64,000 bases of DNA. Source: an endosymbiont of Escarpia spicata. Lineage in GTDB: Bacteria; Pseudomonadota; Gammaproteobacteria; Chromatiales; Chromatiaceae. Shown piece after piece: positions 33,148 to 42,575 of this stretch. Numbering within the stretch: position 1 is the stretch's first letter; each line of letters starts with the position of its first letter. The notes beneath the pieces were generated by a model. It saw only the letters and a program-made list of their open reading frames with translations, had not been told where the DNA came from and searched no databases. The translations under genes and the position numbers were made by a program. The stretch spans positions 186,001-250,000 of the forward strand of contig QFXE01000021.1 in the NCBI GenBank assembly GCA_003349915.1. The letters are read 5' to 3'.

Positions 33148-36156
<3,009 letters not shown>

Positions 36157-36206
36157 TTTATCACCGTCCTGCTCGCGTATCTGGCATTATCTGAAATCAC
36201 TTGGTC

Positions 36207-39200
36207 CTAAAGTCTTGCCTGGTGCTTTTTGAAGTTCTCCGCCTGCTCGAATATCTCCCTGTAAACCTCGTCCCGGTCGACGGGAGGATAGCCGTGCACT
36301 GCAAGCAATATGATCAGGTCAACCTTCAGCTCAGCCTTGATATCATCACGCCGATTCCAGTCTGTATACCTGGCCTTATCCTCAACGACGATTTTAACCG
36401 CTTTGGACAAAGCAATAAGTTTATCTTCCGGGTACTCAAAATCGTATTTGACAGCCAGTCCCTTGAGAATGTCGTAGAAAGCTTTTTCTTCGAAGTCTAT
36501 GCCCAGATCGGCGAATGATTCTTTCTCTTTCTTCAGGGCCTGTAGCAAGTCGATGATTTCGTCAGTGAAGTCTTCCAGGACGTTGCTGACCAACACGTCA
36601 TCCTCTTTGCGTTCATTGTAGCTATCGACAAGCGCCTTGAGCTTCTCTGAGAAGTCCGTGCCCTTGGTTTTGTTGACCTTCCTGAAGTCGTCAATCGCCC
36701 TGGCGAGCAGCTGTTGAAGCAGCTTTATCCTGGTATTGGGCAGTTTTATCTTTTCGATCTTGGCCAGATAGTCATCATCGAAGATGTCGGTTGCGCCAGC
36801 GGAGTCTTCGCCCACCCTGAAGACCTCTGCCACCCCATCGGCCTTTAGCGCCTCGGTAATCATCTCCCGTACCCTGGCGTTCATCTGTGCGGTATCCGGC
36901 GCATTACCTTTGGTGAGTTTGAAGACAATGGAGCGAATGGCAAGGTAAAAATAAATCTGGTCCCGCTCGGCCTGCTTCAGCGCTTCAGAACCGCTGCAGA
37001 TGTCATAGGCGGCCTTCAGGCGTTTGACCAGATGCATGAAGCGCTTTTCGATCTTGTCGGTGATCTGCGCATACTCTGCCGCCATATTGAGACAGTTGAG
37101 CTGCTCCAGCGGACTGCCCCGGTGATAGGGCGTTGCATCAAACTTGTGGAACAGCTTGTTCAGCAGATCCAGGTGATCGCGCACCACGATGACCGACTGC
37201 TCGATCTCCTCGATATTCTGTTTGTCGGCCTTGTTGTAGTGCGCCAAGGCGAGGCTCATCTGCTTCTTGATGCCGATGTAATCGACCACCAGCCCTCTCT
37301 CTTTGCCCTCGAACTTGCGGTTCACCCGCGAGATGGTCTGGATCAGGTTGTGGCGCTGGATGGGCTTGTCGATATAGATGGTATCGAGGAAGGGCACATC
37401 AAAGCCGGTGAGCCACATATCCACCACGATGGCGATTTTAAAGTTGGACTTGGCATTCTTGAACTGCCGGTCCAGTTCCTTGCGGTACTCCTGATTGCCC
37501 AGCAGGTCGTAGAGTTTCTTCGGGTCATCCTTGCCCCGCGTCATGACCATCTTCACCCGTTGCATGGGAAGAGTCTCGCCCCTGGTAGAAGAACGGATCT
37601 TTTGCTCCCTCTCCCCCTGGGAGAGGGCCGGGGTGAGGGCCCTATAAATTTCTTCCAATACCACTTCTGTTTCCGTCAACACTTGTCCGTTATCAAACCG
37701 AAGCATGCGAATACCTCGTTGATTCAATGCCCTAGTTCGTTGCTGATCAGCTTCCTTCTGTCCTTCTTCAAAATGCTGCCCACCATCCAGCTCAACGGCA
37801 AGCTTCTGCTCATGACAGTAGAAATCAAGGATGTAATCGCCGACGGGGTGCTGTCGACGAAACTTGGCATTGGCGACTTGACGATTGCGCAGTGCACACC
37901 ACATCAGCTTCTCGGCGTCTGTTTGATTGCGTCGAAGTTCACGGGCCAGTTTGATGAGTTCAGGGCGGCGTGAAAGTTCTTTTCCCTCACCCAAACCCTC
38001 TCCCTGGGGGAGAGGGCTTTTAGCATTCCACTGCGGGCGAAGGGCAATCAGTTCTTGCCAGAATGCATAGGCAATCCCCCGCTTGCTGCACACGAACATC
38101 ACCTTGCCCTTGAGGGTCGACCCTTCCCCCACCCGCGTCTCGTAGTGCTGCACGAAATCTGCGGCCAGCGCCTTGATGCGGTCCGGGTCACCCAGGATGG
38201 AGTTCATCTGAGCACTGGCCTTCTTGCTCTCCTCGATCTGGTAGTCGCTGGCCCCATCTTCCGCGCACTGCGCATAGTAGGCTTCGATATCTTCCAGCTT
38301 GGCATTGTCGAGCACCACCTTGGCGGCACGCCCCTCATAGACAATGCGCACGGTGATGCCATCCTTTACCGATTCGGTCATGGTGTAGGCATCCACCACC
38401 TCACCAAACACATCCAGCGTGGCATCGATGGGTGTGCCGGTAAAGCCAACATAGGTCGCATTGGGCAGGGAATCGTGCAGGTACTTGGCGAAACCATAGC
38501 TGCGATGTACGCCCTTTTCGGTCACGCGCACCTTCTGGTCGAGGTTGACCTGGCTGCGGTGGGCCTCGTCGGAGATGCAGATCACGTTGTCGCGTTCGGT
38601 GAGCAACTCGGTGTCTTCAGTGAACTTGTGGATGGTGGTGAGGAACACGCCACCGCTGTTGCGCCCCTTGAGCAGTTCACGCAGTTGAGAACGGCTCTCC
38701 ACACTGATCACCGTCTGGTCGCCGATATAACCCTTGGCGTTGGTGAATTGGCCCGAAAGCTGGTCATCCAGATCAGTGCGGTCGGTAATCAGCACGATGG
38801 TCGGGCTTTCAAAATCGACACTCTTCATCAACAGCCGGGTCAGGAACAGCATGGTGAAGCTCTTGCCGCAGCCTGTGGCCCCGAAGTAGGTGCCGCCCTT
38901 GCCGTCGCCCTCCGGCTTACGGTGTAGCTTGATGTTCCAGTAGAGCTTGTTCGCCGCATAGAACTGCGGATAGCGACAGACCACCTTGACCTCCTGCTTG
39001 GAGACATCGGGGAAGTAGATAAAGTGGCGGATCACCTGCCGCAGGCGGTCCTTGTCGAACAGCCCCTGGATCATGGTGTGCAGGGCGTTGATGCCATCCT
39101 GCTCGATGGTCTCATCGCCGGTCACCTTGCGCCAGGTGTAGAAATAGTCGTAGGGCGCAAACAGCGACCCCATGCGCGAATTGACCCCATCGCTGATCAC

Positions 39201-39857
39201 ACACAGGGCGTTGTACTTCATCAGTTCGGGAATATCGCGGGCATAGCGGGTGGTGAGCTGCACCCAGGCGTCGTGGATGGTCGCCTCTTCCCGGATCGCA
39301 CTCTTGAACTCGAACACCACCAGCGGCAGACCGTTGATGTAGAGAATCCCATCGGGGATGCGCTTCTCGCTGCCCTCGATCTCCAACTGATTGACGATCT
39401 TGTAGATGTTCCTGTCGACTCCATAACCGGCCGACCCTTCCGCAATAATGGACTCAAGCTCGCCTTCACGGGGAAGACGCTGCTCGGGCAGCCCCGAATA
39501 GTCGATAAGCTGGATGTACAGATCCTTCCGGCTACGATGATTATTTTCATTGGCAGAAGGCTCCCGCTTGAGCAGGAAACCGTCGGCGACCAGTTTATGA
39601 ATGGTTTTATTGGAGTCGTAGAGATCAGCGGGAGAGAGTGATTCCAGACGGCGGATGATCGAATCTATCTCAGCTTCGGTAAGGTTGTCCCTGGCGTATC
39701 GCTCGGCCAGATAGGCTCGCAGATCGCCCTTGATCAACACCTCGCTGGCCTGTCGGGTAATCGAGCCGCCCTTGTGGTGCGGGTATCCCAGCCCTTCCAG
39801 CAGGGTGATGATCGCCTGTTCCAGTTTTTCTTCCGTGAATTTGTTCATCGTTGCCAA
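36207..39857 (-). CDS. hsdR: Type I restriction enzyme R subunit with an inserted DUF559 nuclease domain
   Basis: 1216 aa, about 130 longer than usual. N-terminal PD-(D/E)XK nuclease near 165-190 (RIPDGILYINGLPLVVFEFKSA), SF2 helicase motor with Walker A near 326 (GATGCGKSF) and DEAH-box near 430 (CISDEAHRSQ), then motif-VI side KMVMTRGKDDPKKLY, IVVDMWLTGFDVPFLDT and QTISRVNRKFEGKERG. Between RPQWNAK (about 606) and LPMQRVKMVMTRG lies an in-frame insert of about 137 residues: SPLPQGEGLGEG, a DUF559 domain (GDYILDFYCHEQKLAVELDGGQH...), then ALTPALSQGERE. In uninterrupted homologues these flanks are close together. The frame stays open, so the protein may be functional if the linker tolerates the domain. 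Works with HsdM and HsdS, both damaged here. Confidence 0.93.
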   Translation of the reverse strand: MATMNKFTEEKLEQAIITLLEGLGYPHHKGGSITRQASEVLIKGDLRAYLAERYARDNLTEAEIDSIIRRLESLSPADLYDSNKTIHKLVADGFLLKREPSANENNHRSRKDLYIQLIDYSGLPEQRLPREGELESIIAEGSAGYGVDRNIYKIVNQLEIEGSEKRIPDGILYINGLPLVVFEFKSAIREEATIHDAWVQLTTRYARDIPELMKYNALCVISDGVNSRMGSLFAPYDYFYTWRKVTGDETIEQDGINALHTMIQGLFDKDRLRQVIRHFIYFPDVSKQEVKVVCRYPQFYAANKLYWNIKLHRKPEGDGKGGTYFGATGCGKSFTMLFLTRLLMKSVDFESPTIVLITDRTDLDDQLSGQFTNAKGYIGDQTVISVESRSQLRELLKGRNSGGVFLTTIHKFTEDTELLTERDNVICISDEAHRSQVNLDQKVRVTEKGVHRSYGFAKYLHDSLPNATYVGFTGTPIDATLDVFGEVVDAYTMTESVKDGITVRIVYEGRAAKVVLDNAKLEDIEAYYAQCAEDGASDYQIEESKKASAQMNSILGDPDRIKALAADFVQHYETRVGEGSTLKGKVMFVCSKRGIAYAFWQELIALRPQWNAKSPLPQGEGLGEGKELSRRPELIKLARELRRNQTDAEKLMWCALRNRQVANAKFRRQHPVGDYILDFYCHEQKLAVELDGGQHFEEGQKEADQQRTRALNQRGIRMLRFDNGQVLTETEVVLEEIYRALTPALSQGEREQKIRSSTRGETLPMQRVKMVMTRGKDDPKKLYDLLGNQEYRKELDRQFKNAKSNFKIAIVVDMWLTGFDVPFLDTIYIDKPIQRHNLIQTISRVNRKFEGKERGLVVDYIGIKKQMSLALAHYNKADKQNIEEIEQSVIVVRDHLDLLNKLFHKFDATPYHRGSPLEQLNCLNMAAEYAQITDKIEKRFMHLVKRLKAAYDICSGSEALKQAERDQIYFYLAIRSIVFKLTKGNAPDTAQMNARVREMITEALKADGVAEVFRVGEDSAGATDIFDDDYLAKIEKIKLPNTRIKLLQQLLARAIDDFRKVNKTKGTDFSEKLKALVDSYNERKEDDVLVSNVLEDFTDEIIDLLQALKKEKESFADLGIDFEEKAFYDILKGLAVKYDFEYPEDKLIALSKAVKIVVEDKARYTDWNRRDDIKAELKVDLIILLAVHGYPPVDRDEVYREIFEQAENFKKHQARL
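37607..38016 (-). mobile_element. DUF559 nuclease cassette bounded by inverted REP-like repeats, inserted in hsdR
   Basis: A 410-bp cassette. Its two ends are 33-bp inverted repeats of the form CCCTCTCCCCC-xx-GGGAGAGGG...GGGTGAGGG (37607-37639 and, reversed, 37984-38016). Between them is a Vsr-like DUF559 domain with DYILDFYCHEQKLAVELDGGQH (Asp...Glu-x-Asp) and LRNRQVANAKFRRQHPVGDY. DUF559 genes elsewhere are often flanked by this kind of palindrome, which reads in translation as PLPQGEGLGEG / PALSQGERE. Here the cassette is spliced into hsdR without stopping it. It lacks intein splice-junction motifs. Confidence 0.8.
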
Positions 39858-39865
39858 GCCTTATC

Positions 39866-39895
39866 GTAGGGTGTGGTGAGGAACGAACCGCACCG
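39866..39895 (+). repeat. hsd-locus REP (family B), copy 1
   Basis: GTAGGGTGTGGTGAGGAACG followed by AACCGCACCG, between hsdR and the RAYT gene. One of seven copies at the hsd locus. Confidence 0.85.
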
Positions 39896-39921
39896 ATCCC
39901 GCATTAACGCAATCACCATCC

Positions 39922-40449
39922 TTATTCACCCCAACGCCCTTCTCCGACATCACATCCCCAGTCATGGGGATAAATACCATTCTGAACGAAACGTTGAAAC
40001 GACGACCATGGCCAATCGATTACCCGCTCGGCCAATCCATGCTTGACAGGATTCCAATGGATATAATCCACATGGCGTCGAAAATCTTCCTCATCGCGAA
40101 TCTGATGCTCCCAAAACCGGCGTTGCCAGATACCACGCTCACCGCGACGATAGCGGCTTGCCGAGAGGGCTTCAGTTTTCGGCAAGGCGCGTGAAAATCC
40201 TGCCTTGATCAACGACCAACGGGTTTTGAAATCTGCATCACCTGGTGGCAACGTCCAAATTGCATGTAAATGCTCAGGAAGAATCACAATTGCATCGATT
40301 TGAAAAGGGTGATCCCCCTTCACCTTTCGAATAGTACTACGCAACAGATCGACCTGCTCCACCAATAATCGCTGATTGGTGCGTTGCTCCAGATTCACCG
40401 TAAAAAACCAACAAGCTCCGGGCGTATCAGGTCTTCGATAATTGGGCAT
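39922..40449 (-). CDS. REP-associated tyrosine transposase (RAYT, IS200/IS605-like)
   Basis: 175-aa Y1 HUH nuclease: YRRPDTPGACWFFTVNLEQR start, the HUH motif PEHLHAIW (H60, H62), the basic SLIKAGFSRALPK, and the catalytic tyrosine in VDYIHWNPVKHGL (Y129). This is the TnpA_REP pattern, the class that nicks and moves REP/BIME hairpins. It sits among seven copies of a 30-bp REP (GTAGGGTGTGGTGAGG...), most within 2.5 kb upstream, so it is very probably the enzyme of that family. Start at ATG 40449 (MPNYRRP); the upstream gene ends five bases earlier. Confidence 0.93.
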   Translation of the reverse strand: MPNYRRPDTPGACWFFTVNLEQRTNQRLLVEQVDLLRSTIRKVKGDHPFQIDAIVILPEHLHAIWTLPPGDADFKTRWSLIKAGFSRALPKTEALSASRYRRGERGIWQRRFWEHQIRDEEDFRRHVDYIHWNPVKHGLAERVIDWPWSSFQRFVQNGIYPHDWGCDVGEGRWGE

Positions 40450-40452
40450 TCG

Positions 40453-41046
40453 TTATCTTTCCATACGATGTAGGGTGTGGTGACGAAGGAACCGCACCGT
40501 TGCCAGACGGTTTCGCGCCACATCCCAAAATGGTGCGGTTCGTACCTCACCGCACCCTACGTGCTCCCGTCTGCAAGCAGTAATTTCTTCATGGCCTGCA
40601 CGGGCCAGATCCATCACCGAGGCGTCTTCGTACCAGAGCATGTGTTCAATATCCTGCGCCATCCGGTTCATGGTGCCCTGCACCGAGCGGTCACACTCCG
40701 TATCGCACACCAGCGGCCCCAGTGCTGCATGGGCGCAATCCATCAGCACATCGTCGGCCCCGGTCTTAAGCAGGGCGTTCATGAAGCCATCGGCAAACCA
40801 GTAATCCAGCTCGGCGAAATCGGCCTTTTTCAAGGCGGGGATGAAGACAGGGAAACGGGTGGCATCGTGTACCAACAGCACGCACTGGCGGCGCTGCAGC
40901 AGGATCAGGTTGGCGTGCCAGCCGCTGAGCGGGCTTTCGTCACCTTCATTAGCCGGGTAGTGGCTGGGCCGTTTGTTCTTCAGACGACCGCCCTCGCGCA
41001 AGGGCAGTTTGGCCAGCAGCTTTTTGGTGCAGTGGAGGCGGATCAT
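40453..41046 (-). CDS. DUF6933-like protein with a REP-encoded C-terminal tail
   Basis: 197 aa from ATG 41046, which overlaps the hsdS stop (ATGA), so it is coupled to hsdS. The N-terminal 150 residues (IRLHCTKKLLAKLP..., WHANLILLQRRQCVLLVHDATRFPVFIPALKKADFAELDYWF) look like the DUF6933 family, small proteins of unknown function. After ARAGHEEITACRREH the frame runs straight through a pair of REP repeats (VGCGEVRTAPFWDV...RLATVRFLRHHTLHR), so its natural C-terminus has been replaced by REP sequence. Its place in the restriction operon is notable; a link to restriction or anti-restriction is conjecture. Confidence 0.7.
   Translation of the reverse strand: MIRLHCTKKLLAKLPLREGGRLKNKRPSHYPANEGDESPLSGWHANLILLQRRQCVLLVHDATRFPVFIPALKKADFAELDYWFADGFMNALLKTGADDVLMDCAHAALGPLVCDTECDRSVQGTMNRMAQDIEHMLWYEDASVMDLARAGHEEITACRREHVGCGEVRTAPFWDVARNRLATVRFLRHHTLHRMER
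40470..40560. repeat. Inverted pair of hsd-locus REPs (family B), copies 2 and 3
   Basis: Forward unit at 40470-40499 (GTAGGGTGTGGTGACGAAGG...) and reverse unit at 40531-40560 (...CGTACCTCACCGCACCCTAC), forming a BIME-type pair inside the 3' end of the DUF6933-like gene. Confidence 0.85.
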
Positions 41047-42086
41047 GAGACGCTCGATGCGGCACCCACCGCAGCTTCGGCATCGGGGATGCGCAGTTGG
41101 CCGGAGAGGAGTTTGGGGAGGAGGGTGTCTCGGAGACATGAGAAGGATACGTTTTGGAGTTCAAGACTCCTTCTTTTCGTATTAATTGCTTCAATTTGTA
41201 GCAGATAGGTATTAAACAAATCATTCGGCGGAAGAATAAAACACCTGGCGTATATTGCGTTTCGATTAACACCAGGAACCGCAGAATCTGCCCCCATAGA
41301 TTTAATATCTAATCGTTGCAACGCTTGGTATATCCAAAAAAGAGGAATATCTATTTTTTCAACCACATAAAATACTGTATCAATTGGGAAATAATCTTCT
41401 TCAACCCAGTGCAATGAGCCCACGGTGCCTTTTCTACCTACGACTACTCCAGGCCCAATAGCATGTTTTTCATTGTGGTACCCAGATACGCCACCAGAGC
41501 CATACACAGGCACATTCCCATCAATGCGTTTAGTAGCTGGTAGCGACTTCCCATACGCAAGTTCAAGCACATCACCGATGGCGTTGACTCCCCACCCCTC
41601 CGGCACCCAGCCCATCTCATCGCTGAAGACAAAACGGCTGGGGAACTGTTTTTGAATCGCTTCGGGCAGGGGTTTGCGTTTGTCGCCCAGCGCCGCTCTC
41701 ACTTCGGCCCTGGCGTGCAGGGGTTCGGGGATGGAGCGGCCTGCGGCCAGGGCGTTGTCGATGACAGGATCGAAATCGACAAACCAGCTCTTGAACAGCG
41801 CCTGTGCCATCGCCTCCAGCGTGGCGTTCATCTGGCGGTTGAGTTCGATTTTGTCGTCTAACGAGGTAAGGATGTCAGCGACGAGATTCTGAAAACCAAG
41901 GGGAGGTAAATTTAACTTGATCCCTTTAAGCGAAGTCAGGGGCTGCCCAATACCTGGCGTGCCGACTTGAGAAGCATTCTTTAATAGCTCATATTTCCCG
42001 ATGTGGCTTTTAAAAAAATAGTAGAGAAATTTTGGAACTGCTCTGCTGGTATCACAAGTGAGCTTCATTAGGCTCGATGAAATCAC
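41043..42086 (-). pseudogene. hsdS: Type I restriction specificity subunit, 5'-truncated
   Basis: The frame is 347 aa from a GTG but starts inside the first target-recognition domain: RYVISSSLMKLTCDTSRAVPKFLYYFFKS is normally preceded by about 120 residues. After it come QPLTSLKGIKLNLPPLGFQNLVADILTSLDDKIELNRQMN (first conserved coiled-coil repeat), a full second TRD (GWVPEGWGVNAIGDVLELAYGKSLPA...) and the final CR (SCLRDTLLPKLLSGQLRI). The missing 5' part is replaced by a copy of the hsdM 3' end ending at ...MEQ. It has no evident ribosome site. A half-TRD HsdS might still dimerise through the coiled coil, but recognition of the first half-site is lost. Overlaps the downstream gene by ATGA. 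Confidence 0.82.
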
Positions 42087-42099
42087 ATATCGCTCATCG

Positions 42100-42575
42100 T
42101 TGCTCCATGTTTTTGCGGATGACGGCGTCCAGCTTCTCAGACTCCCCCATCTGCCGATACAGCCCGTAGGGTGTGGTGAGGTACGAACCGCACCGTTGCC
42201 CTGAATTCACGACAACGCCTATTATTGCCCCCGATGGTTGAGGGTTCATCCATGGCTTCCGGGTCAAATCGACCGCCTGGCACGGTGCGGTTCGTACCTC
42301 ACCGCACCCTACGTTCGGATTATTGGCCATAGCCGAGTTGCTCCATGTTTTTACGGATGACGGCGTCCAGTTTCTCAGACTCCCCCATCTGCCGATACAG
42401 CCCGTAGGGTGTGGTGAGGTACGAACCGCACCGTTGCCCTGAATTCACGACAACGCCTATTTTTGCCCCCGATGGTTGAGGATTCTTCCATAGCTTCTGG
42501 GCCAAATCGACCGCCTGGCACGGTGCGGTTCGTACCTCACCGCACCCAACGTTCGGATTATTGGCCATAGCCGAG
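42100..42575. repeat. Two tandem 238-bp units: hsdM 3' end plus inverted REP pair
   Basis: Positions 42100-42337 and 42338-42575 are near-identical 238-bp units; the hsdM sequence at 42576 onward starts as a third copy. Each unit carries the last 26 or so codons of hsdM (YRQMGESEKLDAVIRKNMEQ), a forward REP (42166-42195; 42404-42433) and a reverse REP (42283-42312; 42521-42550) around a unique spacer. The two copied tails share GES where hsdM has EAS, so one copy was made from the other. Confidence 0.9.

What the first reader, a model, noticed from the sequence alone, without database searches (positions are those of the whole stretch)
36207..39857. A DUF559 nuclease cassette with inverted REP-like ends sits in frame inside hsdR
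Seen: hsdR is interrupted between RPQWNAK and LPMQRVKMVMTRG by about 137 extra codons. The insert is a complete Vsr-like DUF559 domain (DYILDFYC...LAVELDGGQH) and its edges are 33-bp inverted REP-like palindromes at 37607-37639 and 37984-38016. Known: DUF559 genes are frequently flanked by such palindromes. Inferred: REP-bounded DUF559 units may be mobile, with the nuclease acting like a homing or REP-nicking enzyme, and the unit entered a host restriction gene without breaking its frame, producing a double-nuclease HsdR. I know of no described system of this kind.
Basis: partly seen in the sequence, partly recalled or inferred. Interest (0 to 1): 0.85.

Follow-up and report, generated by a model that had tools for sequence, protein, structure and literature searches.

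The report
Palindrome-bounded nuclease gene inside hsdR
A small Vsr-type DNA-cutting enzyme with its own palindromic ends has been inserted in frame into a restriction gene, and the same kind of unit sits in frame inside other bacterial genes, including essential ones, so it looks like a little-noticed kind of mobile element that hides inside proteins.

Summary
hsdR (36207-39857, -) carries a complete DUF559 domain bounded by 33-bp inverted palindromes, in frame. Three relatives have the uninterrupted gene (78-95% identical DNA), so it is an insertion: 455 bp in place of 59, no target duplication seen. The host genome shows no dispersed family of this palindrome, so the ends probably came with the cassette.

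It is not unique. Of 179 DUF559 loci, 126 have inverted ends (0 of 895 shuffles), as do 29 of 34 close relatives on viral contigs. Nuclease and palindrome sequences covary, also across bacterial classes. Cassettes lie in frame in hsdR, hsdM, MmeI-type, metG, hrpA, valS, metH and asnB genes. In four genomes (all metagenome assemblies) the interrupted metG is the only metG found. In one Gallionella hrpA the cassette's ends also occur alone, in frame; exact empty sites exist.

The RAYT beside hsdR has its own, different GTAG REPs.

Best reading: a REP-like palindromic element whose partner is a Vsr/DUF559 nuclease and which tolerates unspliced in-frame residence. The unit and its insertion are shown; that the nuclease drives movement is inferred. 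No such description appeared in the listings of 9 searches of a PMC library.

The parts
36207..39857 (-). hsdR (HindI-type) with in-frame DUF559 cassette, 1216 aa
37569..38023 (-). segment (455 bp) that replaces 59 bp of the uninterrupted gene; insertion footprint
   Evidence: blastn breaks at gene nt 1834 and 2290 in L175, L176 and L177
37984..38016 (-). 5' (gene sense) end: palindrome plus GGGTGAGGG tail
37635..37952 (-). DUF559 (Vsr-like PD-(D/E)XK) nuclease domain, residues 636-741
   Evidence: residues invariant in the 45-row alignment; solved relatives 3hrl and 3r3p
37607..37639 (-). 3' (gene sense) end: CCCTCACCC tail plus palindrome, inverted copy of the other end
37598..37607 (-). GAGCAAAAGA, 10 bp that match the lost linker of relatives; probable host remnant
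   Evidence: compare L175
39922..40449 (-). REP-associated tyrosine transposase (RAYT) next to hsdR, a separate REP system
   Evidence: NF047646 E 5e-61
39866..39894 (+). GTAG-tagged REP flanking the RAYT
   Evidence: 0 mismatches
40470..40498 (+). GTAG-tagged REP flanking the RAYT on its other side
   Evidence: 0 mismatches

Best explanation
The window holds one copy of a widespread coding element: a DUF559 (Vsr-type PD-(D/E)XK) nuclease gene between two inverted, untagged REP-like palindromes. It inserted into a linker of hsdR, replaced part of it, and stayed in frame without stop codons, so HsdR should be made with the nuclease as an extra internal domain. Elsewhere the unit lives free-standing between genes or in frame inside host genes, including essential ones. 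It seems to work as a nuclease-palindrome pair, analogous to RAYT-REP: the nuclease cuts at or near its own palindrome or target, and repair copies the unit in, as with homing endonucleases. Short palindromic units without the gene behave like its non-autonomous companions. SHOWN: the bounded unit, empty sites, in-frame insertion, essential-gene hosts, covariation of nuclease and ends, purifying selection on a fused nuclease. INFERRED: cutting of the palindrome, repair-based movement, production of the fusion.
For: Empty sites: G035, G028 and G084 carry hsdR without the insert. Bounded unit: inverted-end score >=36 in 126 of 179 loci against 0 of 895 shuffles and 109 of 886 mispaired flanks; 44 of 67 against 2 of 268 random positions in the same loci; on viral contigs 29 of 34 close relatives, 0 of 10 distant relatives, 1 of 72 random positions. 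Covariation: Mantel r 0.36, 0 of 1000 permutations reach it; between classes r 0.38, 0 of 2000 within-class permutations (72 of 126 labelled by me). In-frame hosts with Pfam domains. Interrupted metG is the only metG found in 4 of 4 genomes. Exact hrpA empty sites, and the cassette's end type also as solo in-frame inserts in the same gene. asnB split within its amidotransferase domain. dN 0.11 and dS 0.99 for the nuclease between two metG fusions. Solved homologue 3r3p is a mobile-intron protein. No intron RNA at gathering score and no intein domain in the window's HsdR.
Against: No cutting, movement or expression was tested. Copies within one genome are mostly divergent (most pairs 56-70% DNA identity; one pair at 95%), so recent jumps are rare. 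Free-standing copies in Acinetobacter and much of Pseudomonas are syntenic, hence inherited. 53 of 179 loci did not reach the inverted-end score; because the ends are themselves palindromic, 65 of 139 loci also reach it in direct orientation. Palindrome number is only weakly tied to DUF559 presence (20 of 51 against 30 of 144 genomes with excess >=5, MWU p 0.004, no correction for kinship), and G017 and G137 have many palindromes without a detected DUF559. The ends are not more open to translation than shuffled sequence. A RAYT match is present in 24 of 28 genomes. The four metG genomes are metagenome assemblies, so a missed second copy is possible. In the window, 29 bp right of the 10-bp remnant match neither the relatives (8 bp there) nor the ends; they are unexplained.
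Confidence: 0.55

Rival explanations
1. DUF559 is a passenger: two REP-like palindromes that some other enzyme moves (a RAYT) happened to carry the gene.
For: A RAYT lies next to hsdR and 24 of 28 genomes with DUF559 loci have a RAYT match, 21 over the cut-off. Ends also occur alone.
Against: The window's RAYT is flanked by its own GTAG REPs, 7 distinct sites at 39866-42550, unlike the cassette's ends. 4 of 28 genomes, including the 3-contig G464 with asnB interrupted, have no RAYT match. Ends covary with the nuclease. GTAG tags are below shuffled expectation at the ends.
Confidence: 0.13
2. Palindromes are fragile or recombining sites. The nuclease gene is a host repair or fitness gene (as proposed for Caulobacter VsrA) that was trapped between palindromes and spread by ordinary recombination, without being a mobile element of its own.
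For: Free-standing copies are syntenic within genera. A Caulobacter DUF559 protein is proposed as a mismatch nuclease (PMC12907096, passages seen).
Against: Does not readily explain in-frame copies inside unrelated genes of several phyla, covariation with the ends across classes, or different nucleases at the same hsdM site.
Confidence: 0.22
3. Selected fusion: HsdR gained a second nuclease that improves restriction.
For: 16 of the 29 in-frame host genes that I list are R-M genes, and candidate catalytic residues are conserved.
Against: The same unit sits in hsdM, hsdS, metG, hrpA, valS, metH and asnB, where an added nuclease gives no evident gain. The R-M share is biased by the hsdR-derived query.
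Confidence: 0.06
4. It is an intein or intron with a homing nuclease, removed after expression.
For: Vsr-like nucleases occur in introns (3r3p), and L043 looks like a DUF559 inside an intein (Intein_splicing E 1.3e-4, below the curated cut-off).
Against: No intein domain in the window's HsdR, no Rfam match, ends are palindromes, and the frame is open throughout.
Confidence: 0.02
5. Assembly artefact.
For: None found.
Against: Interior of a 463-kb contig, both flanks collinear with relatives, same architecture in isolate assemblies such as Methylomonas sp. WSC-7 and Mariprofundus erugo P3.
Confidence: 0.02

Closest known systems
REP/RAYT systems (REPtrons, REPINs)
   Same: Palindromic ends in inverted orientation around an enzyme gene; palindromes of the same type elsewhere; copies in one genome mostly have dissimilar palindromes (24 of 27 same-genome pairs); intragenic REPs are described (PMC3733652, abstract and passages).
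   Different: Enzyme is a DUF559/Vsr nuclease, not an HUH tyrosine transposase; no GTAG/CGTC tag; the unit including the gene sits in frame inside proteins.
Vsr-like (EDxHD) homing endonucleases, e.g. I-Bth0305I (PDB 3r3p; that 3r3p is I-Bth0305I is recalled)
   Same: Related nuclease by profile (E 5e-4); unit interrupts host genes; empty sites; no target duplication seen.
   Different: No intron or intein; palindromic ends; many different host genes; stays in the protein as far as the frame shows.
Rickettsia palindromic elements (RPE)
   Same: Palindromes inserted in frame in genes that likely encode functional proteins (passage in PMC3733652).
   Different: RPEs carry no enzyme gene (recalled); here a full nuclease lies between the palindromes.
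Free-standing DUF559 proteins (PRK09767 family; E. coli YcjD is recalled; Caulobacter VsrA, PMC12907096)
   Same: Same domain family.
   Different: Not described, in the passages I saw, as palindrome-bounded or as inserted in genes.

Membership tests
DUF559 (PF04480) nuclease | Profile match over the curated cut-off | tested here: met
   121.3 bits against 20.6, profile 5-108/109
DUF559 (PF04480) nuclease | Conserved candidate active-site residues present | tested here: met
   E42, D71, E82, D84, H88 of the 168-aa query invariant in 45 sequences; catalytic roles inferred
REP/RAYT (REPtron) | Enzyme is an HUH tyrosine transposase | tested here: not met
   Cassette encodes DUF559 only; the neighbouring RAYT has its own GTAG REPs
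REP/RAYT (REPtron) | GTAG or CGTC tag at the palindrome | tested here: not met
   GTAG at left end in 14 of 126, shuffled mean 30; CGTC 6 of 126, shuffled 34.6
REP/RAYT (REPtron) | Palindrome is a dispersed family in the host genome | tested here: not met
   Own genome 4 matches against 3 for the reversed control; in other genomes of the order, e.g. G051 (182 against 53) and G139 (46 against 7), the motif is in excess
Homing endonuclease in intein | Intein splicing domain in the interrupted protein | tested here: not met
   Not found in the window's HsdR at E 1e-3
Homing endonuclease in group I/II intron | Intron RNA structure | tested here: not met
   No Rfam match at gathering score in 35500-41500
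Homing endonuclease (mechanism) | Cuts an empty allele and is copied in | not testable with these tools
   Needs biochemistry
Protein-coding palindromic element (RPE-like) | Palindrome inserted in frame in a gene with uninterrupted homologues | tested here: met
   hsdR and hrpA empty sites
Type I R-M HsdR | HSDR_N, helicase and C-terminal domains | tested here: met
   hsdM and hsdS alongside

The most novel reading that the evidence does not exclude
A class of mobile element distinct from transposons, introns, inteins and RAYT-REP: Vsr/DUF559 nucleases are the dedicated enzymes of untagged REP-like palindromes. They spread by cutting and repair, and can settle for good, unspliced, inside essential proteins such as methionyl-tRNA synthetase. 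This would supply an enzyme for palindromic repeats that lack one, and would explain 'DUF559' domains inside unrelated proteins.
Probability: 0.4. Interest if true: 0.92.

Novelty: new variant of a known kind. Interest (0 to 1): 0.8.

Why it matters
REP-like palindromes are common bacterial repeats, and one class (CGTC) is said to lack a dedicated transposase (PMC3733652, abstract). A nuclease that covaries with its own palindromes makes the question of what moves such repeats testable. The cassette also suggests that a foreign nuclease can be carried inside essential enzymes without splicing, which bears on how domains are gained and on how DUF559 proteins are annotated.

Tried and rejected
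One search used a palindrome pattern with a wrong spacer (four bases instead of three) and is not used; one search replaces it. The GTAG search inside the script also had a wrong spacer and found nothing; one search replaces it. One search counted the Gallionella hairpin motif, but its control is uninformative because the motif reads almost the same backwards; I draw nothing from it.

Recent transposition was looked for in 11 multi-copy genomes. Copies were divergent, except one 95% pair in G576; the values printed there for L229 (two of 1.0, one of 0.75) contradict each other and are set aside, and L231 was not in the set. Recent jumps are not shown.

Openness of the ends to translation was not above shuffled sequence, so I dropped the idea that the ends are adapted to coding.

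R-M targeting was considered. Many in-frame hosts are R-M genes, but the query came from hsdR and most rows of alignment A1 sit in R-M genes, so the share is biased; I do not claim targeting.

Ten long frames were scanned: L163, L165 and L166 have a host domain; the other seven (L164, L167, L168, L169, L170, L172, L173) have none, are treated as chance long frames and are not counted.

Rows dropped: one search used 139 of 143 loci and one search used 179 of 184 (short flanks); one search used 72 of 126 (no class label for the rest); one search used 44 of 51 (5 with short flanks, and L329 and L339 left out of its list). In one search pairs of nucleases with similarity of 0.85 or more were left out of the Mantel test. 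In one search the host comparison leaves out 40 residues before and 35 after the nuclease. In one search the script showed the wrong frame for L253, L254 and L255; no hairpin was found in their metG linkers.

Weak cholera and heat-labile toxin B hits (E 0.01 or worse) are chance profile matches and were not followed.
Full report
OBSERVATION. The frame 36207-39857 (-) encodes a 1216-aa HsdR with HSDR_N, SWI2/SNF2, T1R_D3 and T1RH_C domains and, between them, a complete DUF559 domain at residues 636-741. The tail motif GGGAGAGGGNNNGGGTGAGGG occurs twice in the window, both times at these ends. DUF559 is found once in the genome. No intron family and no intein domain is seen.

INSERTION. Relatives of the same genus, G035 and G028, and G084 of the same family, have hsdR without the insert. 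DNA alignments with all three break at the same two points, gene nt 1834 and 2290; the stretch between is 455 bp in the window and 59 bp in each of the three. A fourth, more distant relative (G005) breaks at 1830 and 2290. Identity on either side is 93-95% (G035), 88-90% (G028) and 78-81% (G084). The uninterrupted protein reads RPQWN-EMLAFEADATLTEQEQKTIK-PMQRV in G035. Ten bases of it, GAGCAAAAGA, match beside the right palindrome, so about 41 bp of linker was lost on the left. Further right, 29 bp in the window stand where G035 has 8; they are unexplained. No target duplication is visible. The genome shows no dispersed family of this palindrome (4 near-matches, two of them the cassette's own, reversed control 3), so the ends probably came with the gene.

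NOT THE RAYT'S ENDS. A REP-associated tyrosine transposase lies next to hsdR (39922-40449). It is flanked by GTAG-tagged REPs at 39866-39894 and 40470-40498, with further copies at 40532, 42166, 42284, 42404 and 42522 (7 distinct sites, 9 matches because two sites also match on the other strand). These differ from the cassette's ends. The same R-M locus thus carries two separate palindrome systems.

A GENERAL UNIT. Inverted ends (score >=36) bound 96 of 139 loci against 0 of 139 shuffles and 21 of 138 mispaired flanks; in direct orientation 65 of 139 reach the score, since the ends are palindromic. At random positions of the same loci it is 2 of 268 against 44 of 67. In the larger set it is 126 of 179 against 0 of 895 and 109 of 886. 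On viral contigs, another sample, it is 29 of 34 close relatives, 0 of 10 distant relatives and 1 of 72 random positions. The ends are of several kinds (CCCTCTCCC..., CCCCCTTTG..., CCTCCCC...). Across 126 bounded elements, similarity of the nucleases predicts similarity of the ends (Mantel r 0.36, 0 of 1000 permutations). Between bacterial classes it is r 0.38, with 0 of 2000 within-class permutations reaching it (72 elements, labelled by me from record titles, with the window's family taken as Gammaproteobacteria). Where one genome has several bounded copies, 24 of 27 pairs have dissimilar ends.

IN-FRAME HOSTS. Pfam domains of the host were recognised on both sides of the cassette, in one open frame, in hsdR (window; L033; L166, at a different place), MmeI (L054), metG (L063, L080, L082, L100), hrpA (L058, L066, L088), valS (L053) and metH (L059). 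In hsdM (L032, L052 Methylomonas, L055 Mariprofundus) the methylase domain comes before and the conserved C-terminal stretch (HDYVLTPGRYVG) after. In asnB (L163) the cassette splits the amidotransferase domain. In the following a host domain is recognised on one side only, in some cases because a contig ends: hsdM L057 and L089, hsdS L036, L038 and L040, MmeI/Eco57I-type L034, L056 and L064, a Mod-type methylase L035, and a Mur ligase L090. With the two metG fusions below this makes 29 host genes, 16 of them R-M. Fusions at one end of a gene were seen with sdhE (L107), cbiG (L139), Cas4 (L103), YkuD (L144) and SIS (L039), and murB (L165). L043 is a different thing: it looks like a DUF559 nuclease inside an intein of a Mod-type gene (Intein_splicing E 1.3e-4, below the cut-off).

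ESSENTIAL GENES. In all four genomes tested with metG interrupted (L063, L080, L082, L100) it is the only metG found; all four are metagenome assemblies. Of 140 genomes searched for metG (137 with a match) I fetched 20 with long or longish frames: two more are metG fusions (L248, L249), and two linkers without the nuclease hold a hairpin of the same kind (L245, L263), a third a different hairpin (L247).

HRPA. In the genus of G614, 57 of 61 genomes match hrpA; the cassette is at this site in G614, G814 and G821. Uninterrupted genes have 12 bp (L279, L284, L293) or 13 bp (L277) where L066 has 627 bp. The two ends of the L066 cassette are hairpins of about 100 nt. The same hairpin occurs as solo in-frame inserts at two other places of the same hrpA, and in the hrpA of L277 and L279, which lack the cassette. 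This links the gene-bearing and the gene-free units.

SAME SITE, DIFFERENT NUCLEASES. Four hsdM insertions are at one site. L052 and L055 share 90% in the HsdM part before it (161 aa) but 59% in the nuclease; L052 and L032 share 74% and 80%. The part after it (70 aa) does not discriminate: 74-77% for all three pairs. So the site may have been filled or replaced more than once; a permissive linker would also favour this.

SELECTION. Between two metG fusions (L080, L249) the nuclease has dN 0.11 and dS 0.99; four other pairs have dN 0.12-0.32 with dS of 1.8 or more, and for two pairs dS could not be computed. The fused nuclease appears to be kept under purifying selection. Solved relatives are 3hrl (E 1e-33) and 3r3p, a mobile-intron protein (E 5e-4).

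MECHANISM. The anatomy fits a nuclease-palindrome pair: a cut at the own end or at a target, then repair that copies the unit in, with short losses and no duplication. This step is inferred. A RAYT as mover is unlikely, because four of 28 genomes with DUF559 loci have no match and tags are missing. Against strong activity: copies in a genome are mostly divergent, free-standing copies are often syntenic, and palindrome number is only weakly tied to DUF559.

NOVELTY. Nine paper searches listed no title or abstract start that links DUF559 to palindromes. DUF559 is named in 14 papers (listing seen; I read passages of one). I read passages of PMC12907096, PMC3943268 and PMC3733652. The library lacks most subscription journals. 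Vsr-like nucleases in introns, in-frame Rickettsia palindromes and RAYT-REP systems are known; the combination here is new as far as these searches reach.

Noticed in passing
window 39866-42550: A RAYT with 7 GTAG REP sites around it and in the hsdS-hsdM gap, inside a type I R-M locus, next to the unrelated DUF559 palindromes.
   Followed up: partly
window 40453-41139 (-): DUF6933 protein between hsdS and the RAYT; PADLOC candidate defence family PDC-S63.
   Followed up: no
L043 4256-6385 (-): DUF559 nuclease that seems to lie inside an intein (weak splicing-domain match, below the cut-off) in a Mod-type methylase gene, in a genome of the window's family.
   Followed up: partly
L034 7716-10778 (+): A methylase gene with many in-frame copies of a palindrome-encoded peptide, several in tandem.
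   Followed up: no
L225 and L227 (G576): Two DUF559 copies 95% identical in one genome, each with long inverted flanks: the best candidate for recent movement.
   Followed up: partly
L139, L140, L141, L145: DUF559 fused in front of a CbiG C-terminal domain in L139; the other three have the same frame layout but were not scanned.
   Followed up: no
L129: Record titled Bordetella parapertussis (a metagenome bin) carries a free-standing palindrome-bounded DUF559; the name may be a misassignment.
   Followed up: no
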